Positions 1 through 53,205 of a stretch of 64,000 nt of DNA are shown piece after piece. Location of the stretch: positions 1-64,000 of the forward strand of contig JAGTXO010000052.1 of the NCBI GenBank assembly GCA_019448385.1, given 5' to 3'. This DNA is from Diacronema lutheri. Taxonomy: Eukaryota; Haptophyta; Pavlovophyceae; Pavlovales; Pavlovaceae. Each line of letters starts with the position of its first letter. The first letter of the stretch is position 1. Below the pieces are notes generated by a model. That model was not told the DNA's origin, made no database searches, and saw only the letters and a program-made list of their open reading frames with translations. The translations under genes were made by a program, and so were the position numbers.

Positions 1-1843
1 GCCCCGATCCCGCGCCGGGTGGCAGCGAGCGGCGGCACCTCCTCGGCGAGCCCGCCCCGCGCCTTCCCCTCCACGTGGCGTTTTGAGGCAGACGGACACG
101 CGCCCACACTGCGACTGGGCACGCTGCTCGAGGCAGACACGCACCCAAAAACGCGCGCGCACCACGCGCCCGCGTCGGCGGGCCGGTGTGAACGAGCGAG
201 AGCTCGGTGTCGCCAACGGGGGCACGGGCGCGACTTCGGTCCGCCTCTCGACGGACGCAGGCGCTGCCGGGAACTTCCCCGACGCCTGCACATCCGGGCT
301 TCGAGGTACAGATCTGGGCAACAGTGCCGCTCGTCACCGATGAGGCGGCCAGCTCGCTATCCTTGCTGCCCTCGGCTCCACCAAACAGCCGGGCGACCCA
401 ACGGTTTCGTGATCGCCTGGCCGCCAGGTGCGAACCGCGCCCGTGCAAGCGCTTCACCCGCATTCTCCCGCCCCGCTGCGGACGTCCGCCTGCCGGCCGC
501 GAACACGGCCGGGCGCGTTGCCGCCTGGCCCAACACGAAACCCCGCCCCGCCCCCGAGGCCGCAGGTCCTACCTGCCCACGCGCAGCCCCAACGGCACGC
601 AGACAGCCCGCCTTGGCACCGACTCGTGCGCGAGCGCTCCGCCCTCCACAAGAGCCTGCCCCACGCCACCGCCGACGCGGAGCCATCGCAGCCGACGCCC
701 CTCCGCGACGCTCGCGCCGCAAGGCGCAAGGGCCCGGCGAGACGGCGTCAACCAAGCCCGCCGCTGGCACAGCGCCGGCACCCGGAGCCCCCCCAAGCCC
801 CCGCGCACGCCTCGCCCCCCCCCCCCCCCCCCCCCCCCCCCGATCGGCGGACCGATTGCGTTTTGGTGCGCCAGCTCAATGCGCCATCGCAGTGGCGGGC
901 CCGCAGACGCAGACGCTGACATGCCCAACGCTGGGCACTGAGGCCGCAGGCCGGCCCTCCTGGACCTGGCGGGCGAGCTGCCCGCGCAGCGGCCACGCGA
1001 GCCTCGCACTGACCGTGGCGGTCGCTGCCACCGGGATAGCTGCGGGTGCGGCGGCCTTGGCCCCAACCCCATCATCCGTCTTCATCCCCGCCCTGCTCGC
1101 GCTCGCGGCCTACGTCGGCAATCCCTGCACCGGGTCCGCCCCGCGAAGTCCACACAGACTTATCCGTGCTGCCGCCAGCCGCGCGCGCCCAGACGCGCGC
1201 CGCTCCCACACGCTCACCTCCGTTTCCGCGGGCGGCCCAACAGCCCCCACCCCCCCCCCCCCCCCCCCCCCCCTCCCCCCCCCCCCCCCCCCCCCCGGCA
1301 GCGGCCATCAGCCGAATTAGCCACCACCCGCCCGGGGCCTCCCGCCGCACCCGCAGCGCTCGGCGCCTTGAATCCGCCCGTCCCCCGGGGGTGAGGCCTT
1401 CAACCCGGCCCAGCGCGCTGCTCAGACTGCCTCACCCGCGCAGCGCCAACCCGGCGGCATGGTAGACCCCGACGAAAAGCCGCCCTTCTCGCCGTCCGCT
1501 CGTCAGGCGCAAGTACGTTATCCTGCTCCTACTGCCGACGCGGCTCCCGCGCGCGCGGACTACTACGCCGGGCAGATCGCCGCAGACGCACGTGAGTGCA
1601 CACGTGCGGACAAGGCGCACACGCTCGACGTCCAGTTAGCGCACGTGCACGTGCGCGCCACTGGTCACATTTGAGCGTCCGTGCTCGCCACAGCGTCGCC
1701 ATCCACAAGATGCGCGCTGGAGCCATCCAAGCAGGGCTCTGCCTGCTCGGCTTCCGCAAGGCAATTTGGGCCGCGGACAGCGGACAGCGGACGGCGTGCG
1801 CGTGCGAGGTGCGAAAGGAGGAAGAAGGTAGGGAGAGTTGTGT

Positions 1844-1889
<46 letters not shown>

Positions 1890-2189
1890 CGGGCCGCCGG
1901 AGACGAGGACGCACTCACCGCTGTTGGCAATGCGCGCGTCACGGAGACAACTTGGCGGGCCTCGCACGCAGCTGGGCCGATCGCCGCCGTAGAGATGTCT
2001 GCAGCCGTCTCCGCGATGCCGATCCGTCGCATCTGTTGGCACCGCTGCCATCTGCCGCACCCGCGGGCCAGGCTTGCCGGCAAGGTCGGCGCGTCGGGCT
2101 CCGAGCTCTGCCACGCCAGGCGATGCGGCCGACGGCGGTGACGCTGAGCCCAGCGCCGGGTCCAACGGCTCCACGTCGAGCCGGCTGTG
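1..2189. other. GC-rich low-complexity stretch without a recognisable gene
   Basis: Long open frames exist on both strands but have the Pro/Arg/Ala composition of random GC-rich DNA and show no known domain. Visible structure: a C homopolymer at 815-841, a second at 1251-1296 interrupted by one T at 1274, and a (TG)n run at 1838-1857 leading straight into a G run at 1858-1884. Elsewhere in the window such C runs sit inside introns on the sense strand, so these may mark introns of unrecognised genes, but no exon could be identified. Confidence 0.6.
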
Positions 2190-3330
2190 AACGAGCATGC
2201 TCGCACCACTTGCCCACGCCAGCGCGTCGGACTCAGGCACGTTGTAGATCTGCGCGGGGCAACGCGCGTGCGTGCGGCAGGCGCGCGCGCGAGCTTTCAG
2301 GCCACGCGCGCGTGCCGCGCGGGAGGACGGGGCGGTCGCGGCTGCGCTCGACCGCCGGTCGCGGCACCGAGCGACCGTGCGCGCCGCCGCACGTTGTAGT
2401 CGTCGCACGGGAAACCAAGCCTCGTTGCGGAGCACGATTGGCGACAAGGTGCCCGCTCATCGGCCCCTCGCCCACGTGCACACGCCGGCGACGGGGAGTG
2501 GTCGCGCCCGCCGAGCAGCAGCCGCGGCGCGCACACGAGCGCGCGGTTGTTCTTGCACTGCGAGCCATTGCCGCGCGTCGTGCGCGGCGCCTCGACAGCA
2601 ATGCTGGCTGGCGTGAGCACGCCCGAGTGGCCCGCGTTCGTGTGGCGATCCCGGCGGCGGCCCAGCGGCGCCCCCCAGAGCGTGTGCAAGCGCGCGCGCC
2701 GCATCGCCGCCGACGCTGACGAGTACGGCGATGCCCTCGCCGGCCTCTGAAGGCACGGCGATCTGCTCGAGCACTGGCCCGACGCGTGTGTCGGCTTCAA
2801 AGGCCGCAGCGAGCCCGGGCACTCGGCCGAGCAGCAACCGGAAGAACTCAGCGGCATCCTGCGGCGTCCTTCGCGCGCCACGGCCCGAGATGACGTCGAT
2901 GACGGACACAAGACACAGCCGTGTCGGCGCCCTGTTGTCCTCGATCAGCGTGCCAAAGTCCCGAAAACGCGCCCTCTCGGACGCTGTTGGCACGGCGCGA
3001 AGCGGAGCGAAGCATCGCACGGAGCATGTTCAGGGCGAAGAGCGATTGCATAAGGACGGTCGTGTAGCACGCGCTGCCCTCGTTTTTCGCGCCTGCGCCG
3101 CGCCGCGCAGCGCCGGGTGTGCGGGGGTGCGCACGCACGGTTTGCGGCGGGATGGAGAGAGGCTGGCTGGGCGCGCGCCGAGCCCGGGCAAGCCGTGCAG
3201 GCGCTCACCACGCGGCACGCCGGGCACTCTCACCGGCCACATCGGGCCGTCAAACGCGTCTTCCACAGGCTGCCGACCGACGACGTAAAACTTGCTCAAG
3301 GCGCCGCGCCGTGCACGCGCCATGCGCGCG
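2190..3330 (-). pseudogene. Ubiquitin-specific protease (peptidase C19) domain, frame-broken
   Basis: Read on the minus strand. A Cys box (KNEGSACYTTVLMQSLF, near 3030-3085) is followed in another frame by the QDAAEFFRLLL-like helix (about 2840-2870), then the His box HVGEGPMSGHLVA (about 2450-2485), the segment RNEAWFPCDDYN split over two frames, and a final strand ending near 2190. These are the ordered catalytic-core motifs of USP deubiquitinases, which cleave ubiquitin from substrates. One canonical intron is visible in the C-terminal part: DDYN, GTGCGG... to ...GCGCAG, then IYNVPES. At least three single-base frameshifts separate the motifs, one between the Cys box and the following helix and two within about 40 bp after the His box. 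I read it as a pseudogene, or a gene hit by homopolymer errors. A possible upstream exon (VVGRQPVEDAFDGPMW) lies near 3240-3310. The true 5' end is not resolved. Confidence 0.55.
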
Positions 3331-4855
3331 CTGTTGCGGGCTGCGCAGCAGGGACGACGGGGGAATTGGCGAGCGAGGGTTTGGGCGCAGGATCAGCGTG
3401 GTGGCGCGGCAAGACGAGCGCGCGCCGGGGCGCCTGGCGCGGAGGCGCCCCGCGCGAGGACGCGAGCCGCTTCTCGCACCGGACGGGCGCCCACGCGCAA
3501 GCCGGCTTTCGAGGGCTGGTGGATGGTGGCAGATGCCGAAACGGACACATGGAATGATGCGTCGGCGGCGCGAGCGCGGGACGATCTTGCCCGGGCCAAT
3601 TTTGCGCACGCTGCCAGCGCGCGTATGCGTGCGCATGCAGCGGGCGGCGCGCACGTTGCGCGTGACGGGGCGCCGAGCGGCACACCGGCGGGGACGCGCC
3701 TCGCCGCTGCCGTGGCATCGTACGCTGCCTGCGTGCTGGCCCGCACGCACGTTGCCGGCGCGAGGGGACGGCGAGTGCGCCTCGGCCGAACAGGCGCGAA
3801 CGTTACGCCCGAGCGCGTGGCCGGGCCCCGCCGACTGCAACGCAGCGCCGGCCCAGGCGCGCATCCGCCCGACGCGGATTTGGACGACGCATCGACCGGC
3901 ACGCCGAGCGTCTGCGCCCGCCTCGCGGCCGGTCGCGCCGGCCCTCTTCGGCCCGAGGCCGCACGTCCGCCGCGCGCCGCTTTGGCGGCGCGGCGCGGCG
4001 CTCCCGAACGCGCATGGCACACGCGCGGTGCGCGGGCACGCCCGCAACGCGCCATTCCAGCGCGAGCAGTTCGGCAAGCTTGCAGCGCGCGAGCAGCCGG
4101 GCATGTGCCGCGAAACACAGTTCGCTGTGTGCGCCGGCCGCGACGACACGGCGTAGCGGCGCGAGGCTGGCCGCCGGGGCCACGGGCGTACTGCCGTGGC
4201 GGCGACGCCATGGTATGAGCAATAATTTCATCGGGGGGTGGGGTGGGGGGGGGGGGGGGCGCGTTTGTGCGCACTTGGCGCGCGAGTAGTGCGAGTGGCG
4301 GGCGAGCCTCGTCGCCCACGGAGCCCGCCCCCGGCTCGGCGGCGCGCCGCCTGCTCGCCGGGTCGCGCACCGGCCGTCGCCGCCGCTGCGCACTTGCCCA
4401 GCTTGCCGGCAGGCGGCAGGCGGCGGCGACGGCGGGCGGCGGGCGGCTGCGGCTGCGGCGCGAGCGCGAACGCCGGGCGGCGGCAGCGCCGACGGCACGC
4501 GCGCAGGCGGCGACCCACGCGGCGGCGGGCAGCGCGCCAGCGTGAGGCCCCTGCGCGCCGGCCCGCATTGGCGCCGCCCTGCGCGCCCTAGAAGGGCGCG
4601 CAGGTACGCGGGCCGGTCGCGGCGGCGCGCGGGTGCTGGCGAGCACCCGACGGCTGCGCGTCGGCGCGAGCGGGCGCGGCGGGCGTCGCGCCGGCGGGTG
4701 CTGGCCAGCACCGCGCGCCGGCGGCGCGCCCGCCGCCAGCGCGCCGCCCGCCGCCGGCGCCGCCGCGCCGTCCGCGCCCGCCGCCACCGCGCGCCGCCGC
4801 CGCGCATTCGCGCGCGGCGCGACGGGCGGCCCGCGGCGAGCGCCGCCGCCGCCGC
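3331..4855. other. GC-rich stretch, possible 5' exons of the protease relic
   Basis: No domain is recognised. On the minus strand from about 4215 to 4000 one frame has balanced composition (LLARCKLAELLALEWRVAG is part of it) and could be an upstream exon of the broken protease. A G run lies at about 4248-4259. From 4300 to 4855 the DNA is almost purely G/C with short direct and inverted repeats, and all open frames there look like composition artefacts. Confidence 0.4.
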
Positions 4856-7020
4856 CTCGCCACCGCTGACCGCGCGGAGCACCTCTTTGAAGACGACGCT
4901 GCGCGTCACGAGGTCCGCGCCGAGCGCAAAGACGGACGCGCGACGTGTGCCCGACGCGCGAAGCGGCCACGTGGAGCTGGCCGTGCGTGAAGGCACGGCT
5001 CGGCGAGCCACACGCCCGCGCACCCGAGCGCTTGCCCCCTGCGCCTCGTTACGCCGGCCGACCGGGGGAACTGGCGGCGCATCCCGCACAAGCGCGAAAC
5101 GTGCACGGTCGTTCGGGCGAGTGGGTGTCGACACGCGCGGAAGAGCACGGTGCTGTCGCGCCCGGCGGCCGCGCCGGGGCCGTGGCACTCGAGCAGCACC
5201 GGCCGCCGGCGCGCACGCCGCGACACGATCAGCCCGCTCGGTGCCGCCGCACAGCCCCCTCGCCGGGCGAGAGGTTGCGCGGCAGCATCACCACCATCCC
5301 GGGCTTCAGGTCGGGACGCGGTGCGGCATCTGCGCGTGCTCGAGCGAGTCGAGGAATTCGACCGACGCCCGCGCAATCTGCTTGCCCGCCCGTCGTCGCG
5401 CCAGCTCGTCCGCCGACGCGCACCTCGCCGCCGCGCCCGGGAAGCGGCCGATCGCCAGCCAGTTGATCCGCGCCACGTCCGTCTGCTTGGCGCAGAGCAC
5501 CGCGCGGTCGCACAGCGAGCCGTCGTCGGTCCAACAACGTCGCGCCGTGGACAAAGTCGTCACCGAGCTCCGTCGGGTAGGCCGAGCCCACGCGGATGGG
5601 GACTGCCGCCGACGGCCTCGGGCAGCTGCACGGGATCGAGCGGGAATGCGCCGGGCATTGCCCGGCCGCCGGCAACAGCCGCGGGAACGGCGGCCGTCGC
5701 CGGGGGCTGCGCGACAGCTCCGCCCACTCGCCCGCGCCGAGGCGCGTCGCCCGTGTCGCGCGCCGCGCTCGAGGCGCGAACGTTCTGCGACCAAGGCGTG
5801 CTGCCGATCGGTGCTGCCACTGCGCCGAGTACTTGAGGCAGGAGCGCACGATCTGCGCGCGCGAGCCGCGCCGCACCACCGTCAAGCACTTGGCGAAAGT
5901 CGCCGGCGAGCATCAGCGTCTCGCCGCCGAAGCGCTCGTCGACGGCCCGTCACTTCGCGCAACAACACCGATCAGGCGAGTCGAGGTGGCACCGCAGCGT
6001 CCTGCAAGATCGGCGCCTCGTCCCACACGACCAGCCGCCGCGGCGGCCAGGGAGCGCCCCTCGCTCGGAGCGCGGCACGCCATTGAACGGCTTGCCCGTC
6101 GGTAGTCGGCACCGCCGGGCACCTTGAAGGTCGAGTGGAAGGTGCGGCCGTCGGGCTAGCAGCGTGGGCGGCGACGACCCGAGGACGCGCCCACGACGAC
6201 CGCGTTGCCCATTCCGCGCGCACGGCGGCGATAATGGCGCGCTCCGACGAACGTCCTTGCCCGTTCCGCCCGGCGCGTCGCAAAGATGCAGCCGGTTGCC
6301 CACGCCGCGCAGCGCCGATTTGACGACCGGCGCCGTGGAGCGCGCACTGCTGGCCGCCCTCGGCCATCGCCGCGCGCGCCGCCGCCGCGCATCGCAGCCC
6401 GCTCGGCGCGATGGTAGCCCTGCGCGCGCGCGAGCTCGGCGCCCGCCCGGCCCGGCCGGCGCGCGCGCCGTGCGCAGACCGGCCACCGCCGCGAGCGCCG
6501 CCGCGCGCTCGCGCATCGTCGGGCACGTACAGCCCCGTGGAGGTCGAACGTGTCGGCCCAGGCGGGCACGCCGTACGAGGCGAAGGCGTCCGAGCCGGGC
6601 TGCGGCCGCTGCTCGGCGCGCTTCAGGAGCATGACCCCGCACACGTTCCACTTGGTGCCAAACATCGAGCCCGTGAGCCCCGTGTAGACGCGGTCGAGCT
6701 GCGGTGGGCGATGGCGCAGACGTCCTCGTGCCGGATCTCGTCCGACGGTTCGCGCCGCGCGTCGACGAGCGGCACGACTCGCTCGGAGCCCGCCCACGTG
6801 AACGTGGCGCGTCGACATGTTCAGCCGCGTGTGCGCGAGCGTGTCGTCCTCGTACTTGGGCTTGACGGCGGGCGAGAGCTTGCCGCGCACCTCCTCCTTC
6901 GAGAGGCCGCGCGTGTTGAGCAGCTCCTTCTGGCGCGCGTGCACCCGTCTCGACGCGCTGATCGTCGATGGCGCGCAGGGCGCCAAAGTAGGCGTCCATC
7001 TATGCGCGAAGCGGCGCCCT
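4856..7020 (-). pseudogene. Pif1-type DNA helicase relic, copy A
   Basis: Minus-strand similarity to copy B at 27781-29324 runs through the whole interval. Recognisable pieces in N-to-C order are a conserved pre-helicase block (MFGTKWNVCGVML, about 6630-6670), the Walker A segment DAPGGTGK (about 6270-6290), DEAPI Walker B (about 6010-6030), and the C-terminal block with QALGCAGVWLAEP, then GHTSRVR and VVFKEVLRAVSGGE ending near 4860. In Pif1-family enzymes the C-terminal block is the last helicase motif. Relative to copy B an extra G just after the Walker A lysine destroys the frame, and further indels follow, so this copy is dead. Pif1-like helicases of this kind are common in Helitrons and other large eukaryotic DNA transposons; no Rep or integrase domain was found, so the element class is open. 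Copy A extends further upstream than copy B. Confidence 0.65.
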
Positions 7021-42989: not shown

Positions 42990-45900
42990 GAGGGCTCTAT
43001 GTAGCGTGCTCTTGCGAGTGGGAAGTTGTTGTCGAGGAGGCCGTGGATGATGAGCAGGCGAGCCGACTCGCGCAACTTGGCCACATGCGCGATCGCCGAC
43101 GACTGCACATACGAATCGACGTGCTCGTCGGGCATGCCCATGTAGCGCTCGGTGTAGTGCGTGTCGTCTGTCGCGGGCAGTGCAAAAGGCGGCACAACGC
43201 CGCGTCAACGCGGCTGCAGCGCGCACAGGCTGGACGTGAGCGGACAGCGGGCGCGCACATCCCGTCCAGTGCGTGACTGGCGCGCCACAGGCCGCCGCGC
43301 AAAACACATCGGGCGCGTGCTCGAGGCACATCAGCGCGAGGTAGCCGCCGTACGACCTGCAGGAGGGCGCGACGTCGGCGGCGGACGGGATGAGGGCATT
43401 GCGCACGCAAAGCGGCAGTGATGCGATGCACGCGAGTGCCCGTGTGCGCGCCACGCGCCAAGGGCGCGCCGCACCATCCCATCACGCCGACGCGTGTTGC
43501 ATCGGCCAGGCCGCGCTCGACGAGGTGTTTGACGCCCGTCACCTGATCCGACGTCTCCACCACACCGAGCTGTCCAGCAATTGCCTGCTCGAAGATCACC
43601 CCGCGCCTGGACGAGCCGCGGTTGTCCAGGCGGACGACAAGGAAGCCCTCCTGCGCGCCGCGATCGGAGGGCACGGGTCTTTCGGGTGCCCGATCAACGC
43701 AGACTCGCGCGCTGCCGCCCGGTCTGGCGCGCAGGCGTACCTGCGCGTAGTACTGCTCGCGCATTGCAGCGGTCAGCTCCCAGGTGTTGGCCGTAATCTG
43801 TATGCCAGGCCCTCCGTAGCACGCAACGATGAGCGGGAGCGGGCGCGCAAAGTGCGGCGGCGGATGATAGACGGCGGCGCGCAGGTCATGGCCTTCAGCG
43901 TTTGTGATGGTGACGAGCTCGGGCGCGCGCATGCCGAGCCGGTCGATGCGCGGGTCCTGCCGGCATACGGGAGCGGGCGGGCGGCAGGGTGCGCAAGCAT
44001 CAAGAGCACTGCAGCTGCTGGCACGGCCGCGCATGGGGACGCAGGCGGCGCAGCAGCACCTCGTTCTTGAAGATGACCGCGAGCTGCTCGCCGTCCGACA
44101 CGCGGTGAAGCGTCGCCTTGAAGGGCTGCACGATCGAGTTGCAGACGTCGATGAACATGCGCATGTCATGCGAGATCTCGATCTCGTGGCAGCCGTCCTC
44201 GCGTGTCAGCCGCGTCGGCTCGTGGGCAGTGGCCGTGAGCAGCGCACGGGCAGGTGTGGCCTGCAGTCTGCGAGACGGATTCGCGCACGCCGAGGGTAGG
44301 ACGCTTCCCAGGGGCGGTTGCGCCTGCCCGAGCACGGCGTGGCCGAGACCCCACGGCGCACGCAGCCTCAAAGCCTCGGCAGCCGAATGCGCGACAACCG
44401 AGCGGCCAACTGGCGCCGATTCTCGCAGCTGCACGGAGTAGAGGTTGCGCTGGACTTGGTCGGGCAGCGAGCAGGTGAAGAAGACGCGGTTCGCCTCCTC
44501 GTCGACGCCCTCGAGCGTGTCGATGACCCACTCGCCCGACGTGAGCGCCGCCTCGCACTCGCCGACGACCGAGTAGCGGTAGAGGTGATGATGACCCGAG
44601 CGCGAGCTGCCCCAGACGAGTCCGCCGTCGCTCAGCTCCCACAGACAAGAGCCCAAGTTGAGCCATCGGTCCGAGCGCTCCTCGATCACGACCGTGCCGA
44701 GGAGCGGCGGCATTGGCGCGAAGGGCACTGTCCAGTTGCCCTCGCGCGGAGCCTCGAAGCGCAGCAGCCGCAGGGCGCGCTGCGAGCGGTCCTGGACCTG
44801 GACGTACAGCGTGCCCTTCTTGCCCCACGTGACTGATGCGACGTCTGCGGTGCGCACGGAGGACCACGCGCGGAGCGAGGAGCAAGAGTGCGCGCATCAC
44901 ATCAACGTGCCACCGTCACCCCTGCACGTCGCACCGGCGCGCGATGCGTGCGGCGGAGCACGCGCGCACAGCCGTCGGCGAAACGCCTGTAGCCCGTCGA
45001 GCCGTACTGCGCCGGCGGAGGCGTGGGCGCACAATCTCTCGTCGAGCATGGCTGCGGCGGGAGAGTGGATGACACGAGTCCAACCGCCGAGCCGTGGAGC
45101 GTGGGCTTGTCGACCACGTCCGATGGCAGAGGTCTGCGCCGCACCCAGTCGATGCCCAGATCGAGCCACGTCACCTGGTTCGAGCCCTCGGACGCGACGA
45201 CGCCGATGTGCACGACTGCGTTGTTGCCGCCGGCGAACGGGTAGCGGACCGTCTCGTCCTCGGGCTCCTCGCCAAAGTGCGGGATGATGAACTCGGGGAT
45301 TGAGCTCTCATCCGTCTCCTGCGGACGCGCGTGCACGCAGCGCGGTAAGAAAGCGGCTGGGCCAAAAGGCACGCTCGTGCGAGCGCCGCGCACACCTGGA
45401 AGGCGATCCACTTGGAGTCCGTGGACCACCAGTAGCCGTCGAAGCGGTTCATGTCCTCCCTGGCGCAAAAGTCGGCGAGCCCGTGCTGGATCGAGCCTTT
45501 TGCGCCGCGCGTGAGCTGCACGGGCACGGGGAGCTGCTTTGGGTGGCGGCGCACTTTCGCCGCGTCACGCCCGGCGCCTGGATGGTGCGCGCGTCGGTGT
45601 GCGCCATGGTCTGCCTGCAAGGTGCCGTGCGAGATGCCCGCCTTGGCAGACGAGCCGTGCGTACGCTGCACAGGCACGCCATGAGGCCATGCGCCGATGT
45701 GCGACGGCGTGCCGCCAATGTGTGCGAGCGAGGGCGAGTCTGATCGGCATGCATTTGCGCCGGCTGTCGCGCCTGCAGGACTGGCTTGTGCAGCCCTGCC
45801 ACCGCCGTGCGCCGTGTCGCTGATCACGTAGATCTCGGCGCCGCGCACGAACGCGAGCAGGCGCTCGTCAGGCGAGAGCTTGGGCTCAAGAATTGGCCCG

Positions 45901-46475
45901 GCGGCAAGGTTCGGCGAGACGGACTGCGCGTCTATAAGCATCGTGGCAACATCGTCAGGTCCGTGCTGTTGGATGCCACGGGGCGTGCGCGCGCGCGCGT
46001 GGGCAGCGCGAGCAAAGCACAGGTCAATGAGAGCACGCACTTTGCTGACAGCGGTGGCGCCGCAGCTGTCGACGCCCATTGCTGCGCTCACCTGAATGTA
46101 CACGGAGCCGTTCGCCTGGAGCAGAACGGTCGGCGACTGGACGTGGCCCCAGCAGAAAGTGAGGATGCCAGGCCTCCACGAGCGCGGGCGCTCGCGGCGC
46201 ATCTGCTCCTCAAATTCACGCCTCAGCGGGCCCGAGAAGGAGTAGTCCGCCCGCACGAAGTGTGCGGGCTGCGAGAGGCGGCCGTCGGCGTTGATGTCGC
46301 AGTACCACATGCGCTGCTCCGACTCGCCGCTCGGCGTGAGCAGGAAGCCGATGCGACGGTCGTCGGCAGTGAAAGAGAGGCTCGTGGGCACGGACATGCC
46401 GGGTCTCGGCTCCGACGCCACATCCTCGATGTCGATCTCGTGCGGCGCGCGCGCGCGCTGGTACGGGCGTGGCAT
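42990..46475 (-). CDS. Dipeptidyl-peptidase DPP8/9-like serine protease, lacking the C-terminal His region
   Basis: Exons 46092-46475, 45396-45965, 45145-45318, 44060-44844, 43741-43956, 43475-43650, 43259-43356 and from 43167 down. The N-terminal half is the beta-propeller (FCAREDMNRFDGYWWSTDSK; GTLYVQVQDRSQRAL; GCHEIEISHDMRMFIDV). The alpha/beta-hydrolase part has LPLIVACYGGPG, FLVVRLDNRGSSRRG, the nucleophile GWSYGGYLAL (formed across a splice junction), [20 protein letters not shown], and the Asp-bearing IHGLLDNN. S9B enzymes cut Xaa-Pro dipeptides from N-termini. The sequence stops just after that Asp: the ~50 residues with the catalytic His are absent, and the frame runs on into the start codon of copy 2. 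As sequenced it should be inactive. Between exons 3 and 4 no GT-AG pair preserves frame (one base off). Divergent from the kinesin-like gene with 36 bp between start codons. Confidence 0.75.
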
Positions 46476-46598
46476 CCAGAGCGCAAGAAGACTGCCAACC
46501 TCCGAGATTTGATGGCCAGCTGCAGCTGTTTGCGATCGAGCAGGTTTTCCCCGGTCTTGGCAGGAACTATTTTGGGGCGCGATTTTGGGGGGCCTTGC
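46476..46598. promoter_or_regulatory. Compact divergent promoter, DPP / kinesin-like gene
   Basis: Start codons are 36 bp apart if the kinesin-like protein starts at 46512, or 123 bp if it starts at 46599. The region contains GGAACTATTTTGGGGCG and GATTTTGGGG, weakly resembling E2F-type TTTSGCGC sites. The longer spacing is easier to reconcile with a promoter. Confidence 0.3.
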
Positions 46599-49500
46599 AT
46601 GCCGCCTCGGCTTGCTGCGCGCTCGGCGAGCTCGGTGGGCGGGCGGCCCGGCTTGCGCGGCACGGCGCCCGTGGTCGGCGCAACATCCGACGATAGGGAC
46701 GCGCGGCCCGCCGTTGGCATCCGCCTAACCAGCGGCGCCGCGGGCGCCACGAGAGAGCACGCGCCGTCCGCCGTCGTGCAGTGCGAGAGCTCCGCCCGCC
46801 GCGTGTGGATCGAGCGAGCGGCGAGCGAGGCCGAGGAGGGCAGCAAGTCAATGGTCTTCTCGAGCACGTTTGACGCCGTCTCCGCCGAGCCTGCCCTGCA
46901 GCCGCTCTACGACGCGTGCGCGCGCGCGCAGGTCGCGAGCGCGCTCTCGGCGGGGCGGCGTGGGTCCGCCATCATTCTGCTCTTCGGCAACGCGGCCGGT
47001 GCGCGCGCGATGCGTCGGACGCGGCAGCGTCGCCGCACCCGCACCGCGTTTGCGCGCGGCGTCGGCCGCGCATGCGGCTTGAAGGGCGCGCGCGCATCTT
47101 GTTCGCCTGCGCTCCCGCCCGCCCACCGCGCAGCCCCAACTCGCGGTCGCGCGGCGCCGCGCCGCCTTCCGCCTCAGACGCGCACGACTCACTCATGGGC
47201 ACGGCCGTGGCGACGGGCAGCCACGTCGCGGCGAATACGATCGTCGACGGCGTGCGCTCAGCTCCGACCACCGGCGCAAGCGCGGGCGTCGCGCAGCTCG
47301 CCATCGCTCAGGCGCTCGCCGCACTCGAGGCCGTGGGCGACGTGGACCGGCCGCTGCTCGAGCTCAGCGCGGTGCAGCTCACGTGCGAGCTCGAGTTTGA
47401 CCTACTCGACGACGACTCGCCCGAGCCGCCCGCGCCAGCGGCCTCGTCGCACGCACAGCGCTTGGCCAGAGCGCGCCGGCCGGCAGCATGGCTGCCCATC
47501 TGTGCGTGCGCGGCAGCATGGCTGCCCATCTGTGCGTGCGCGGCAGCATGTCTGCCCATCTGTGCGTGCGCGGCAGCATGTCTGCCCATCTGTGCGTGCG
47601 CGGCGTGCGCGGCGTGCGCGGCGTGCGCGGCGTGCACGCGGTGCGCGCGAGCAGGCGCGCTTTGCGCGAGCATTACAGGGTGGGCGCCGTGCGCCGTGCC
47701 GTGTGCAAGATCGTAGGCGTGCACGCCTCCATGCACGCTTGCGCCCGTCGCTTAGCGCGTGCTCGCCTCGACGCATCCCCCCCTCCGGACATGCGCGCAC
47801 ACCCACGCCCAGACCCACCAAAACCCACCCACATCCACGCCCACACTCACCCAAACCCACCCGCACCCACCCACACTTCCCCACACCCACCCACCCACCC
47901 CCTTCCTTTCATCCGCCCCGGTGCTCGTGCCGCCTCGCCGCCATGCTTGCTCCGCGCGCAGCAAGCATGGCGGATGCGGACGTGGCACTTGCGCGCGTGG
48001 CCGCAGCGGTGCGTTCTCTCAGTCATCCGCCCGAATTCAGCCACACGCTCCTCTCTTTGCGATGTGTGAGCCGGTCGGCTCCCCGGCGTTCAGTCACGCG
48101 CGGCTCGAGCGGGTTACTGTCCGCGAGCGCGGTGTCGACGAACGCGCATGCGGACAATGGCGGCGTGGCCGCGGACGGCGGCGGGAGCGCGCGCGGTGTG
48201 GAGGCGGGCGCTCAGATTGTCATCGTTCGCCTCGCTGAAGGCTTGGCCCCCGCCATTGGTGCCGACGGCGGCGCAGGCGGCGCAGGCGGCGCAGGCGGCG
48301 CAGGCGGCGCGAGCAGCGCGCTCCCGGGCGCGAGTCCGGGAACGGCGGCTGCTGGCGACGGCGTCGGAATCGGCAGCGCAGGCGCCAGCTGGGTGGCCGC
48401 GCTCGGCGCTGCCGACACGTCTCGCGCCGAGCTCTGGAGAAAAGTGGCAGGCCTTTCACGCACCGGCGCGGCGCGCGGCGGCGGCGCGCGCGCGCGCGGC
48501 CGCACGCCCTCAGCGACGAGCCTTGGCGTCGCCGGCGGCGCGGTCGCTCGGCCGCTTCTCCCGCCTTTGCTCCCACGCCATCTCTCCGACCTCTTCGAGC
48601 CGCGCGCGGGCGTGCGCGCGCGCGTCGGCGCGCTCTGCCACGTGCGCGGCGCGGGCGCGCACGGGGACGAGCGAGTCGCGCTGCTGACCCTCCAGCAGGC
48701 GCAGCTCCTCATGCGCGCGCGGCTGCGCGCGCCCAAGTCGAGCGGCGAGTCGGACGAGCTCGCCGCGACGATGCTCCTGCAGGCGCTCCTCGCCGAGCGC
48801 ACGGCCGAGTGCGCGGACACGCAGGCGCGCGCCGCGGCGCTGCGCGCGCGCGAGGCCGCGCTGGCCGCGGCGATCGCTGGCGCGGACGAGCAAGCGGCCG
48901 CACTCGCCGCCGAGATCTCGCAGCTGCGCGCCGAGGCAGCGAGCCTGAGCGCCGCCGCCGACGCCGCCGGCGGCGCGCTCGGCGGTGGCGACCGCAACAA
49001 TGGCGGTGGTGACCGCAACAATGGCGGTGGTGACCGCAACAATGGCGGTGGCGACCGCAACAATGGCGGTGGTGACCGCAACAATGGCGGTGGTGACCGC
49101 AACAATGGCGGTGGTGAACGCAACAATGGCGGTGGCGCGCGCGCCGACGAGACGCGAGCGTCCGCGCCGCCCGCGAGCGCGGCCGAGCCGAACGGGCGCG
49201 CGCGGCCGAGGCAGCGGGCGGTGGCGCTCGCGTTGACGGACGACGCGCTTGAGCCACCGCCGCGCCAGCCGCACGGCGACAAGGAGGCGCGCGTCGAGCC
49301 CGCCGCGCTCGGCGCGCTGCGCGACGCCGTCGCCAAGCGTCAGGAACGGCTGCGGGCGCTCTCCGCCGGCGCGGGCGTCGCCGGCTCGCCGTCGGCGGCG
49401 CTCGGCGGCGCGGACGGCGGCGCGGGTGGCGCGTGCGGCACGGCGGCGGCCCCCCCGTCGCCCGCGCTGGCGAGCACGCTGCTCGAGTATCGCGCGGAGG

Positions 49501-50569
49501 TCGAGCGCGCGTGGCAGGCCGTCGCGTCCGCGCGCCAGGAGAAGGAGCTGCTACAACGTTCTGCCGAGGAGAGTGTGGCCACGCAGGTGCGCGTGGCACG
49601 ATGGCGACAGCATGGCGCCTGCGCGCGTGTGCGCGCATGCGGGCGCAAGCGCGCCTGTGCGCGCTCGACGGTGCGAAGCGCGAGCGCAGGCGCCATGCTG
49701 TCGCCATCGTGCCACGCGCTCACCCCTCCTTTTCTCCCCCTGTCCTCTCCTCCTCCGTGTCGGCGTTTCCTCCTTGGCGTTGTCGACAGGCCTACATGTT
49801 CTCCACACGGCAAGCAGCCGAGGCCGCGCTCCAGGCAGTGGGTGACAACCTGCACCTCCTCGGGTGGGAGCGACGCAACTCTGGCCAACCGCAGCTCGCG
49901 CTCCCGCTCTACGCCGCCGCGCTCGCCATCTACGAGGCCATCCTTGGCCCGTCGCATCCGCAGGCCGCCTCGACGATCGTCAACCTCGGCAACGCGCTCT
50001 TTGACCTCGGCCGGCACGCCGAGGCGGCGGAGCTGTACCGCCGCTCGCTCGCCATCGACGAGGAGGCGCTGGGCGACGACCACCCGGACGTGGCGATGGA
50101 CCTGTCCAACCTCGGCATCGTCTATCGAAACATGGGCCACACGCCGCAGGCGATCGCGCTCTTCCAGCGCGCGCACGACCTCCTCGAGCGCGCGCTCGGC
50201 GCAGACCACACGTCGACGCTCACCGTCGCGCGCAACCTCGCGAAGCTGCAAGCGGTTGTCGACGAGCCCTCGGACACGCCAGCCTCGAAGCAACCAGCTG
50301 CCGCGTTTTTGCCTGCGGGCGCGAACGGCGCGGCGGCTGGCCTTGCTGCGTCGTCGTCCGGCCTCACGCCCCGCGCGCTCGCGGAAGAGGTGACGCTCAG
50401 CCTTGACGAGGACACGTACGTCGAGCAGGCGGAAGTCGTCGGCGCGCTCTTGCTGCGCGAGCACGTTGCCGACGCGCGCGCGGCCGCGGGCTTTGGGCCG
50501 TCGCGCCCGGTGCCGTCGCGCGCGACGAGCCCCGAGCTCGACGGTGGCGCGGAGGACTCCGAGTCCTGA
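46512..50569 (+). CDS. Kinesin-like protein with degenerate motor motifs and C-terminal kinesin-light-chain TPRs
   Basis: Exon 1 ends at 46998; exon 2 starts at 47178; exon 3 runs from about 47965 to 49586; exon 4 is 49790-50569. The N-terminal part follows the kinesin motor pattern: a beta strand (AVGIRLTSG), VVQCESSARRVWIE, FSSTFDAV, the helix before the P-loop, SAIILLFGN, then after the first intron LMGTAVATG and LELSAVQLTCELEFDLLDD (the EIYNE-DLL region). At the P-loop position the spliced sequence is GNAADAHDS instead of GQTGSGKT, the SSRSH position reads PPEFSHTLLSLRC, and the DLAGSE position reads VIVRLAEGLA, so ATP binding is unlikely. A coiled coil (48750-48960), seven Gly-Gly-Asp-Arg-Asn-Asn-Gly repeats and another helix lead to three TPRs of kinesin-light-chain type (LPLYAAALAIYEAILGPSHP; AELYRRSLAIDEEALGDDHP; IALFQRAHDLLERALGADHT). 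It is probably a cargo-adaptor or light-chain-like protein. ATG 46599 is an alternative start; the exon 2/3 junction is not resolved. Confidence 0.6.
47482..47640. repeat. 30-bp tandem repeat (x4) followed by GGCGTGCGC repeats
   Basis: Four 30-bp units beginning GGCAGCATGGCTGCCCATCT at 47482, 47512, 47542 and 47572, then four 9-bp GGCGTGCGC units. They lie near the end of exon 2 or within intron 2 of the kinesin-like gene; all three frames are open through them, so coding status is uncertain. Confidence 0.8.
48981..49133. repeat. 21-bp coding tandem repeat (x7) in the kinesin-like gene
   Basis: Seven units of GGCGGTGGTGACCGCAACAAT with third-position T/C variation and one GAC-to-GAA change, coding Gly-Gly-Gly-Asp-Arg-Asn-Asn. 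The array acts as a flexible linker between two predicted coiled coils. Confidence 0.9.
49587..49789 (+). mobile_element. Hairpin-bearing intron (introner-like) in the kinesin-like gene
   Basis: Canonical GT-AG intron of 203 bp. Directly after the donor, GCGTGGCACGATGGCGACAG and CATGGCGCCTGCGC (49590-49624) are mirrored by GCGCAGGCGCCATGCTG and TCGCCATCGTGCCACGC (49685-49718), giving ~34-bp arms around a ~60-bp loop. The 16-mer CGACAGCATGGCGCCT in the arm (49605-49620) also occurs at 8204-8219 in the palindromic element. A T/C-rich tract and the acceptor GTCGACAG follow. It looks like an intron created or colonised by a short inverted-repeat element. Confidence 0.5.
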
Positions 50570-50656
50570 GAGGCAACGAGTGACAAACACTGGCGGGAAC
50601 CTTTTTTCACTCACAGTCTTTTCACTTTTGAAAGGGCGGGAAGTGGAAGGGCAGCC

Positions 50657-51031
50657 ATGGCGAGCGAACCGCTGGACAGTGCGCGCTTCAACGGCGCAGG
50701 GCCAGCCGATGCGTGACCGTGGCGCGCGCTGACGCCCGCCGCGCACCATCCGCCCTACGCCGCGCGCACCCTTTGATCCAACCGCGCTGCGCCGCGCGCG
50801 CCTATCGATCCGGCCGTACCGCGGGCAGTCCTCTTTGACATCTCGCAGACGCTCGAGACGGGACTGGACCAGGAGACGCTCGCGATCCTGCTCGCGCTTT
50901 GCGAACAAGGCGTCAACCCGGAGGCGCTCGCGGCGGTTGTGAAGGAGCTGCGGCGCGAGGCTGCGGCGCTGCGAGCCGCAGTAGAGGGCAGGGCAGGCGA
51001 CGAGGACGGCGAGCCCGCCGTGTTCCGTTAA
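50657..51031 (+). CDS. MZT1: MOZART1, gamma-tubulin complex adaptor
   Basis: Two exons: 50657-50678 (22 nt) and 50829-51031, joined by a GTGCGCGC...GGGCAG intron with matching phase, giving 74 aa. The product begins MASEPLDILFDISQ and continues with [20 protein letters not shown] and [18 protein letters not shown], the hallmark of MOZART1 along its full length. MZT1 binds the N-termini of GCP proteins and is needed for gamma-tubulin ring complex recruitment and activation at spindle poles and basal bodies. The tiny first exon means that neither exon alone gives a start-to-stop frame, so simple ORF finding misses the gene. It sits 87 bp after the stop of the kinesin-like gene on the same strand. 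Confidence 0.88.
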
Positions 51032-51387
51032 GAGTGAGCGAGCGTGCGGCTTCGCGTGACGCGCGCGGATGCTCGAGACCTCTCAGGGGCGTGAGAGAAT
51101 CGGCACTGCCGGCCGTGGGCGTGGCGCGTGGCGATGCGTTCGTTGGTAGGTTCCGGCTGACGCCCCATTTGCCTCTGGTTCGGTGGCCGCTTCACGGTGC
51201 AATAGCGACAGCGCAAGCAAGGCGTCGTCGGGTTGAAGGCTATTGGCGCAAATGCCGCCGCCGCATCGCTGGGAATGGCAGCGGCGACTCCGTGGCCACG
51301 GCCCAGTGCCCACTCGCCACCGGTCTCCGCACGCGGTCTGGCCGTCTGGGTCGCCAGCATGGCGGCTCCTTCCGCGCTCGCCACTCG

Positions 51388-53205
51388 GTGAACACGGAGG
51401 AGGTCATCCTCCTCGGGCTGCCGCCCAAAGAGCGCGGCGCAGCGCTGCGCGCCGCGCTCGCGGCGGCGCTCGAACGCCGCGACCCGGTGATGGTGGCCCT
51501 CTGCCTCTCCTGCACGGGCAGCGCGGCCGAGCGGCGCGCGCTCGCGAGCGCCGCGTTCGCCGCCGGCCCGCTCTGCGGCCAGACGATGCTGCACGCGGCG
51601 CTCGCGCCCGCAGACGCGCCCGACACGGCAGATGCGGCGCTCGTCTTCACGCTGCTGCGCGCCAGCGCGTCGCCGTCCGCCGTCGACTCGCAGACGCGCA
51701 CCGCGTGCCACGTCGCCGCCGCGCGCGGTCGCTCGGCAGCGCTGCAGCTGCTGCTTGACGACGAGAGCGGCGCGGCGGCCAGCGCGGCGGCGCTGCGCTC
51801 GCGCAACGGGCAGACGGCGATCGCCGCCGCGCTCGGCGCGCGGCCGCACCGCCCAACACACTGCGAGTGTGTTGGCCTCCTCCTCCGTTCCCGCTGCCCG
51901 GCAGACGGCTCTCTAACTCTCGCGCGCGGGCGCGGCAGCGGTTTCTCGCAGCTCCACCTTGCAGTCGCGGCGAGCTGCGCGGCGTGCACGAGCGCGCTGC
52001 TCGCGCGCTCGGCGGACCCGCGCGCGCGCTCCAAGCGCGACGGAATCACGCCGCTCCACCTCGCCGCGCAGTTCGACGGGACTGGCCGCATCGTCGAGCT
52101 GCTGCTGCGCGCGGCCGCCGACCCGCGCGCGACCGGCGCGGCGGGCGAGACGGCCGTGCACGCGGCCGCGAGCGCGTGGAACGGGCGGGTGCTCGCGCGG
52201 ATTCTCGACAGCGCGGCAGATCCGGCCGCCGCCGCGCGCCGGCGCGACGCGAGCGGCGCAACACCTCTCCACCACCTCGCCGTCGGCGGCGCGGTGACGC
52301 ACACGCGCGGCGCGGCGGGCGGCGCGCGCGTGGGCGCGATCGCGCGGCTGCTGCTCCGTCACCGCGCGGAGCCCGACGCGCTCGCACTTGATCGCACCAC
52401 GCCGCTCGCGCGCGCAATTGCGCGCCTCGCCTCGGCTCGCCCCACGCCGCCCTCGGCTAAGGCGTCGTTCGTTTGGGCGGGTGGCGCGCGTGCCGCTGCG
52501 GCGCGTGACAGCGGCGCGCGCGCGCGCGGCGCGACCGAGCCCGTGGACGAGGTCAGCCCCGACGACGACCGGCCTGTCGACAGCTGCGAGCCGGACGCAC
52601 GAAGCGACACCGCCGCGTCAGCTGCGCCTCTGGCCGTGTGCGCGGTTTTGATTGCAGGCGGCGCGACAGTGGACGCGCGCGCGCTCGCGTTGCTTCGCGC
52701 GGGACCGGCGGCGGGCAACGCGGCGGATGAGTCGACAGCTGCGGGTCGGACGTGCGAGTCGGCGTCCGACGCACGACGCGCGTGCGCGTGCGTGGCGCGC
52801 GACGGCCGCGTCGCCTCGCTGCGCGCGCTCTGCGAGTTTGCGCTTTGCGCGCAGGTCGGCGCCGAGACCGCGCCGGCGCTGCACGCGCTCGCCCTCGACG
52901 TGGACGCGCGCGCGCTGCGCGCCGCGTGCGAGGACTACGCGCTGCAGCTCGGCGTGCGCGGCGTGCGCTCCTGCTCGTTGATTCACGCGGTGCTCCGCCA
53001 GATGACGAGCGCGTGGGCGCCGGCCGCGTGGGCTGCGGGCGCGCTGCGCGACGGCGACGGCGACGACGACGTGTGCGACGCGGACGGCTGCGCGTCCAGT
53101 TCGGAGCTCGAGCGCTCTGAGCGCGGGCACTGCGCGTCACACGATGAGGATAGCGCGTGGGATGACGACGCCAAGTGCGGGTTGGCGGCCGTCGGCGAGG
53201 TTTGA
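51388..53205 (+). CDS. Ankyrin-repeat protein
   Basis: An uninterrupted frame of about 605 codons with ankyrin repeats from about 51590 to 52400: TMLHAAL, TRTACHVAAARGRSAALQLL, FSQLHLAVAASCAACTSALL, GITPLHLAAQFDGTGRIVEL, GETAVHAAASAWNGRVLARI, GATPLHHLAVGG. After a charged linker, ASLRALCEFALCAQVGAETA and a following helix resemble the helices that close BTB or SOCS-type adaptor domains, so a ubiquitin-ligase adaptor role is possible but weakly supported. The C-terminus is acidic. The frame is open well upstream of 51388 into the MZT1 exon but without an ATG; the true start is probably in an upstream exon (an ATG in another frame lies at 51358, just before a GTGAAC). Substrate and partner are unknown. 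Confidence 0.65.
   Translation: MNTEEVILLGLPPKERGAALRAALAAALERRDPVMVALCLSCTGSAAERRALASAAFAAGPLCGQTMLHAALAPADAPDTADAALVFTLLRASASPSAVDSQTRTACHVAAARGRSAALQLLLDDESGAAASAAALRSRNGQTAIAAALGARPHRPTHCECVGLLLRSRCPADGSLTLARGRGSGFSQLHLAVAASCAACTSALLARSADPRARSKRDGITPLHLAAQFDGTGRIVELLLRAAADPRATGAAGETAVHAAASAWNGRVLARILDSAADPAAAARRRDASGATPLHHLAVGGAVTHTRGAAGGARVGAIARLLLRHRAEPDALALDRTTPLARAIARLASARPTPPSAKASFVWAGGARAAAARDSGARARGATEPVDEVSPDDDRPVDSCEPDARSDTAASAAPLAVCAVLIAGGATVDARALALLRAGPAAGNAADESTAAGRTCESASDARRACACVARDGRVASLRALCEFALCAQVGAETAPALHALALDVDARALRAACEDYALQLGVRGVRSCSLIHAVLRQMTSAWAPAAWAAGALRDGDGDDDVCDADGCASSSELERSERGHCASHDEDSAWDDDAKCGLAAVGEV

What the first reader, a model, noticed from the sequence alone, without database searches (positions are those of the whole stretch)
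46512..50569. Kinesin-like pseudo-motor fused to kinesin-light-chain TPRs
The N-terminal half follows the kinesin fold step by step, yet all three nucleotide-contact motifs are replaced: GQTGSGKT by GNAADAHDS (read across a GT-AG junction), SSRSH by PEFSH, DLAGSE by RLAEGLA. The C-terminus carries three kinesin-light-chain-type TPRs with the [GP]xxHP turn. A catalytically dead motor domain joined in one chain to light-chain TPRs would be a self-contained cargo adaptor or a dominant regulator of kinesin-1, not something I know as an established family.
Basis: partly seen in the sequence, partly recalled or inferred. Interest (0 to 1): 0.75.

Follow-up and report, generated by a model that had tools for sequence, protein, structure and literature searches.

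The report
Dead kinesin motor fused to TPRs
An alga's gene encodes a former kinesin motor whose ATP-binding parts have worn away but which is still joined to a kinesin-light-chain-like cargo-binding region; it is a strongly altered member of a family of motor-plus-TPR proteins, and a related species keeps the same gene.

Summary
The window lies in the haptophyte Diacronema lutheri. The four-exon gene (46512-50569, 1071 aa) has a motor-like N-half without recognisable P-loop, switch I or switch II motifs, then KLC-type TPRs. Pfam and PDB sequence searches do not recognise the N-half. A 948-aa metagenome protein (P0128) has the same order in one reading frame, agrees at two of three splice joins, and is 46% identical in the pseudo-motor against 24% in the stalk, so the gene is conserved. 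Profile comparison of the pair with 124 kinesin-motor rows scores 52.2 (best of 496 shuffles 25.2; best of 70 decoy frames, run singly, 22.4).

The interpretation needs correction. This is not a dead motor newly joined to kinesin-1 light chains. Of 20 TPR-bearing kinesins in a capped list, 18 have all three motifs; the six with organism names are haptophytes; their motors group with a green armadillo-kinesin clade. The window gene's TPRs fall inside that family. The same genome has intact members (C100, C6 minus) and more degenerate ones (C6 plus, C98). Most likely it is a non-catalytic cargo adaptor or regulator; the alpha5 microtubule-binding signature is gone too. The mechanism is inferred, not shown.

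The parts
46512..46998 (+). exon 1: N-terminus to P-loop-equivalent of the pseudo-motor (residues 1-162; residues 1-65 have no counterpart in P0128, so the start codon is uncertain)
46986..47191 (+). P-loop-equivalent GNAADAHDS, split by intron 46999-47177; 11 of 15 aligned residues in and around it (156-170) identical to P0128; no GxxxxGK[ST] here
46999..47177 (+). intron 1 (GT-AG)
47178..47501 (+). exon 2: includes GVAQLAIAQALAALE...LELSAVQLTCELEFDLL, a kinesin-like block (27 of 41 identical to P0128)
47502..47961 (+). intron 2; its ends are uncertain (47506/47965 also fits); the donor lies in a 30-bp tandem repeat
47962..49586 (+). exon 3: rest of the pseudo-motor, stalk with low-complexity repeats, helix before the TPRs
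48030..48044 (+). switch I equivalent PEFSH (not conserved in P0128)
48228..48248 (+). switch II equivalent RLAEGLA (RLGEGLP in P0128; 13 of 18 identical in the block)
48549..48599 (+). alpha5 equivalent RPLLPPLLPRHLSDLFE, in place of the usual PPFRESKLTRLL
49479..49586 (+). segment before the TPRs (LLEYRAEVERAWQAV...), aligned by MAFFT with the same segment of intact kinesin-TPR fusions (no statistic computed)
49587..49789 (+). intron 3, with 39-bp inverted repeats 97% complementary; no other copy found in the genome
49790..50569 (+). exon 4: three KLC-type TPRs and a C-terminal tail

Best explanation
The gene encodes a non-catalytic member (pseudokinesin) of a family, so far named only from haptophytes, of armadillo-kinesin-related motors that carry KLC-type TPRs at the C-terminus of the same chain. 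Shown by sequence: profile homology of the N-half to those motors, absence of recognisable nucleotide motifs in two species, shared TPR module, conservation. Inferred: it does not hydrolyse ATP or walk. It dimerises through its long stalk helices, with itself or with an intact paralog such as C100. Its TPRs bind the same kind of peptide cargo or partner as those of the live motors. The dead head serves as a protein-protein surface or steric brake, so the molecule works as a cargo adaptor or regulator of the live kinesin-TPR motors.
For: Motor homology: hhalign 52.2 against at most 25.2 in 496 shuffles and 22.4 in 70 decoy frames; 49.8 with the 120 database kinesins only, which still include C6 minus and C6 plus as P0001 and P0005; 33.4 against the 68 kinesins P0053-P0120, none annotated with TPR_12, where 240 shuffles reach 23.6. 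Motif loss: none of the motif patterns matches in the window protein, nor in any of the six frames of 46000-51000; P0128 has one GNISGGKT, outside the P-loop position and absent from the window protein. Constraint: pseudo-motor 191 of 415 aligned residues identical, stalk 42 of 176, coil plus TPR 163 of 192. Family: TPR module 52-57% identical over 145-163 residues to eight intact fusions including Prymnesium parvum P0027; ultrafast bootstrap 100. In-genome paralogs: C100, C6 minus, C6 plus, C98. Long helices at P0128 residues 465-537 and 672-737 in the model, and similar ones in the single-sequence model.
Against: No biochemical or RNA evidence. Only two sequences define the pseudo-motor. Pfam and PDB searches see no kinesin in it. 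hmmsearch of the single N-halves with an HMM of 120 kinesins does not beat shuffles: window -2.3 bits against 3.5; P0128 3.3 bits against 7.1, two of 2000 shuffles higher and one equal. A template of intact close relatives only scores just 34.9, without a control run. Three alignments place the P-loop differently. The structure model depends on its alignment. No coiled-coil predictor was run.
Confidence: 0.6

Rival explanations
1. Vik1/Cik1-like foothold: the dead head still binds microtubules and pairs with a live paralog, so that the heterodimer moves differently.
For: Yeast Kar3 moves processively as a heterodimer with a non-catalytic Cik1/Vik1 head that has a microtubule site and cannot bind ATP (passages of PMC4338441). 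Live and dead paralogs coexist in this genome, and P0128 has long stalk helices in its model.
Against: The alpha5 signature R[DEN][ST][KR][LM][TS]R, found in 117 of 120 listed kinesins and in C100, C6 minus, C6 plus and C98, is absent from the window protein and P0128; the three listed kinesins without it have close variants (RECKLTR, REAKLTR, REQKLTR). That this motif marks microtubule binding is recalled.
Confidence: 0.2
2. A decaying pseudogene or misread intergenic DNA rather than a working gene.
For: Low-complexity repeats in the reading frame; no D. lutheri protein for this gene (no rows) or among the 120 listed of 693 rows.
Against: P0128 keeps the whole length in one frame, with conserved blocks inside the pseudo-motor; codon-position G+C pattern in all four exons.
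Confidence: 0.05
3. An active kinesin whose motifs sit in exons that the model misses.
For: The exon 2 to exon 3 join is uncertain, and about 460 bases of intron 2 separate them.
Against: P0128 is continuous through all three motif regions and lacks the motifs at their places; no P-loop, SSRSH or DLAGSE pattern in any of the six frames of 46000-51000 (a motif split by an intron would escape that scan).
Confidence: 0.03
4. A TPR scaffold whose N-half is unrelated to kinesin.
For: No direct Pfam or PDB match; hmmsearch no better than shuffles.
Against: hhalign scores with two kinds of control; the TPR module belongs to a motor family.
Confidence: 0.07

Closest known systems
Kinesin-TPR fusions with intact motors (P0017, P0023, P0027 of Prymnesium parvum; C100 of the same genome)
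   Same: Motor, stalk and KLC-type TPR order; TPR module 50-57% identical
   Different: They keep P-loop, switch I and switch II (C100: DLAGCE); 19 of the 20 TPR-bearing listed kinesins match the alpha5 pattern and P0019 has the variant RECKLTR
Armadillo-repeat kinesins (ARK) of green plants and algae
   Same: A green clade that includes Marsilea P0091, named armadillo in its source, is sister to the kinesin-TPR motors (joint node 100; TPR-side clade 81)
   Different: Armadillo repeats instead of TPRs (plant kinesins: PMC1434745 passages; most members listed show no ARM annotation, so the ARK label of the clade is partly recalled). The one ARM-annotated row, P0119, falls outside the joint node (support 60). 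Catalytic motifs kept
Yeast Vik1/Cik1 (kinesin-14 partners)
   Same: Kinesin-derived head without an ATP site beside a catalytic paralog (PMC4338441 passages)
   Different: Other kinesin class; known to bind microtubules and heterodimerise, neither shown here
KIF26/VAB-8 (kinesin-11)
   Same: Atypical kinesins in a conserved family (one passage of PMC5590807; that they lack ATPase activity is recalled)
   Different: No TPRs (recalled); different class
Kinesin light chain
   Same: KLC-type TPRs, KLC1 E 1.9e-32 to 1.2e-29 in PDB
   Different: Three TPR turns here; KLC has more TPRs and is a separate subunit without a motor domain (recalled)

Membership tests
Kinesin superfamily (active motors) | Pfam PF00225 match | tested here: not met
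   No match at E<=10 for the window protein, its N-half or P0128; none of the 121 PF00225 matches of the genome lies on C95
Kinesin superfamily (active motors) | GxxxxGK[ST], SSRSH and DLAGSE at their places | tested here: not met
Kinesin superfamily (active motors) | Kinesin motor homology by profile-profile comparison | tested here: met
   weaker methods missed it
Kinesin superfamily (active motors) | Kinesin fold | tested here: inconclusive
Kinesin-TPR family | TPR module clusters with the family | tested here: met
   25-sequence tree, ultrafast bootstrap 100
Kinesin-TPR family | Segment before the TPRs shared with intact members | tested here: inconclusive
   Aligned, read by eye, no statistic
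Kinesin-TPR family | Catalytic motor motifs | tested here: not met
   also lost wholly or partly in C98, C6 plus and P0004
Kinesin-1 / KLC | Motor of the kinesin-1 clade | tested here: inconclusive
   Paralog motors group with the green clade, not fungal KHC; the window motor itself is too divergent and was not in the tree
Kinesin-1 / KLC | KLC heptad region that binds heavy chain | not tested
   -
Vik1/Cik1-like non-catalytic partner | Head without nucleotide site | tested here: met
   by sequence motifs only
Vik1/Cik1-like non-catalytic partner | Microtubule binding | tested here: inconclusive
   alpha5 signature absent
Vik1/Cik1-like non-catalytic partner | Heterodimer with a catalytic kinesin | not testable with these tools
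   -

The most novel reading that the evidence does not exclude
Pavlovophyte haptophytes run a set of live and dead kinesin-TPR heads, with dead heads in several grades (P-loop kept in C6 plus and P0004; motifs lost but alpha5 kept in C98, which also has a VHS-like domain; everything lost in the window gene and P0128), that pair or compete with live paralogs to tune cargo transport: a Kar3-Vik1-like logic evolved independently in a cargo-carrying kinesin.
Probability: 0.2. Interest if true: 0.7.

Novelty: new variant of a known kind. Interest (0 to 1): 0.45.

Why it matters
Dead kinesin heads are few and mostly studied in yeast and animals (recalled). Here a conserved one sits among live and half-degenerate paralogs of the same architecture, which gives a graded series for asking which motor functions (ATP, microtubule binding, partner binding) can be lost while a kinesin head stays under selection. 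The intact kinesin-TPR fusions also put motor and KLC-type cargo domain in one chain, where animals use two subunits (recalled).

Tried and rejected
Pfam and PDB sequence searches with the N-half of each species: no kinesin. Protein search with the first 800 residues: 7985 candidates scored, none at E<=10. hmmsearch of the single N-halves with an HMM of 120 kinesins: not above shuffles; with an HMM of the four D. lutheri paralogs: 17.5 bits, above all 2000 shuffles, but one shuffle reached 15.7. One search timed out. Searches were at risk of stale output files (several rows repeat earlier results), so I redid them cleanly and use only those. The 124 motor rows hold C6 minus and C6 plus twice (as D. 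lutheri loci and as P0001, P0005). A global hhalign over 338 columns scored 56.4 but no control was run for it. A structure model of P0128 with 33 kinesins gives a kinesin fold, but one search shows that the input alignment put the P-loop about 11 residues off, and the model from the sequence alone has no fold (mean pLDDT 41.4); I count it as weak support. Multi-copy introner idea for intron 3: only itself found, in a search that skips very common words. Intron-position sharing with C100: both have a phase-0 intron just before the TPRs, but about 11 residues apart in the alignment, so not claimed as identical. Papers: ten searches; no listed title or abstract start showed a pseudokinesin-TPR fusion, but one search listed 15 of 80 papers, 10 of 92 and 6 of 14, and subscription papers are largely not held. 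A word search in PMC2867816 (kinesin evolution) found no mention of TPR, tetratricopeptide, Emiliania or light chain.

Full report
Where it is. The window is contig C95 of a 43.49-Mb, 103-contig genome in which contig C9 has 3,042,068 bases. The published Diacronema lutheri assembly has 43.503 Mb, 103 contigs, a longest contig of 3.042 Mb and 73.25% G+C (passages of PMC8379373). I take it to be that alga. Labels such as C100 or C6 are contigs of this genome.

The gene. ATG at 46512, stop ending at 50569, four exons and three GT-AG introns give 1071 residues. Third-position G+C is the highest of the three codon positions in every exon. Exon 2 to exon 3 has two equally good joins, and residues 1-65 have no counterpart in the relative described next.

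A second species. The homology search with the TPR part returned P0128, 948 aa, from a JGI source (longest contig 3386 bases), reported as 74% identical over 92% of the query. It is one uninterrupted frame that holds pseudo-motor, stalk and TPRs and is 51% identical overall. It agrees with joins 1-2 and 3-4. Identity by part: P-loop equivalent 11 of 15, switch II block 13 of 18, switch I block 11 of 36, whole pseudo-motor 191 of 415, stalk 42 of 176, coil plus TPR 163 of 192. The degenerate head is therefore more conserved than the stalk. RNA evidence for D. lutheri itself was not available to me.

The motifs. The window protein matches none of the patterns for P-loop, SSRSH or DLAGSE, and no frame of 46000-51000 does; P0128 has one GNISGGKT after the DLL block, which I read as chance because the window protein lacks it. 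The alpha5 signature is also missing, while 117 of 120 listed kinesins and the four paralogs match it and the other three have close variants.

Family. Searching with the intact paralog C6 minus found 7476 kinesins, of which the best 120 were listed; 20 of these are annotated with TPR_12. Six of the 20 carry an organism name: D. lutheri (P0001, P0005), Pavlovales sp. CCMP2436 (P0004), Prymnesium parvum (P0024, P0027) and Chrysochromulina (P0013), all haptophytes; the other 14 are unnamed. Eighteen of the 20 keep all three motifs; P0004 and P0005 keep the P-loop only. In a tree of 38 motors this clade (81) is sister to a green plant and algal clade that includes an armadillo-named Marsilea protein (joint node 100), away from fungal heavy chains; the ARM-annotated P0119 lies outside that node (60); C6 plus with P0004, and C98, are on long branches. 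In a 25-sequence tree of the coil-TPR module the window gene and P0128 fall with C100 and the P0027 group, ultrafast bootstrap 100. The window gene is thus most likely a kinesin-TPR fusion that lost its motor function, not a motor remnant that picked up light-chain repeats.

Other degenerate members. C98 lost P-loop, switch I and switch II (YGQDVSHTA, SLRALCH, AQLAPPP), keeps alpha5, and carries TPRs and a VHS-like domain below Pfam's cut-off. C6 plus lies head to head with the intact C6 minus and keeps only the P-loop of the three motifs.

How it may work. Shown by sequence: homology, motif loss, conservation, architecture. Inferred: no ATPase, dimerisation through the stalk helices, cargo or partner binding by the TPRs, action as adaptor or regulator beside live kinesin-TPR motors. 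A Vik1-like microtubule foothold is possible but less likely because alpha5 is lost. A link to kinesin-1 has no support here.

Novelty. Pseudokinesins are known (Vik1/Cik1), and TPR is in print in a list of kinesin-associated domains (PMC1434745 legend). A conserved pseudokinesin inside a kinesin-TPR family did not appear in the listings of my searches. I rate it a new variant of a known kind.

Noticed in passing
L033 (G000:C98:48500-54000), 1067-5500 +: A second motif-less kinesin head with TPRs and a VHS-like domain (VHS E 1.1e-5, below Pfam cut-off), alpha5 signature kept.
   Followed up: partly
L034 (G000:C6:81000-90500): Head-to-head pair: intact kinesin-TPR (minus) and a half-degenerate copy (plus) that keeps the P-loop but lost switch I and II; P0004 of Pavlovales sp. 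CCMP2436 is its relative.
   Followed up: partly
L035, L036, L038, L039, L040, L041 (G000: C98, C70, C3, C6, C9, C82): Six further low-scoring kinesin heads: none matches the SSRSH, DLAGSE or alpha5 pattern and three (L038, L040, L041) also lack the P-loop pattern (frames read without splicing). L039 has a PH domain, L038 C2HC zinc fingers. D. lutheri may hold many pseudokinesins.
   Followed up: partly
window 49587-49789: Intron 3 holds 39-bp inverted arms, 97% complementary; no other copy found in the genome.
   Followed up: yes
window 47481-47604 and 48981-49135: 30-bp x 4.1 tandem repeat over the intron 2 donor, so that several similar GT sites exist, and 21-bp x 7.4 repeat in exon 3 coding GGGDRNN.
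   Followed up: no
window 44000-46724, minus strand: Divergent neighbour with dipeptidyl peptidase IV N-terminal domain.
   Followed up: no
window 50839-53205, plus strand: Ankyrin-repeat frame downstream.
   Followed up: no
window 46512-50569: No D. lutheri protein for this gene (no rows) or the 120 rows listed, although other D. lutheri proteins are in the database: it may be missing from, or differently modelled in, the public gene set. Both searches limit candidate length.
   Followed up: no
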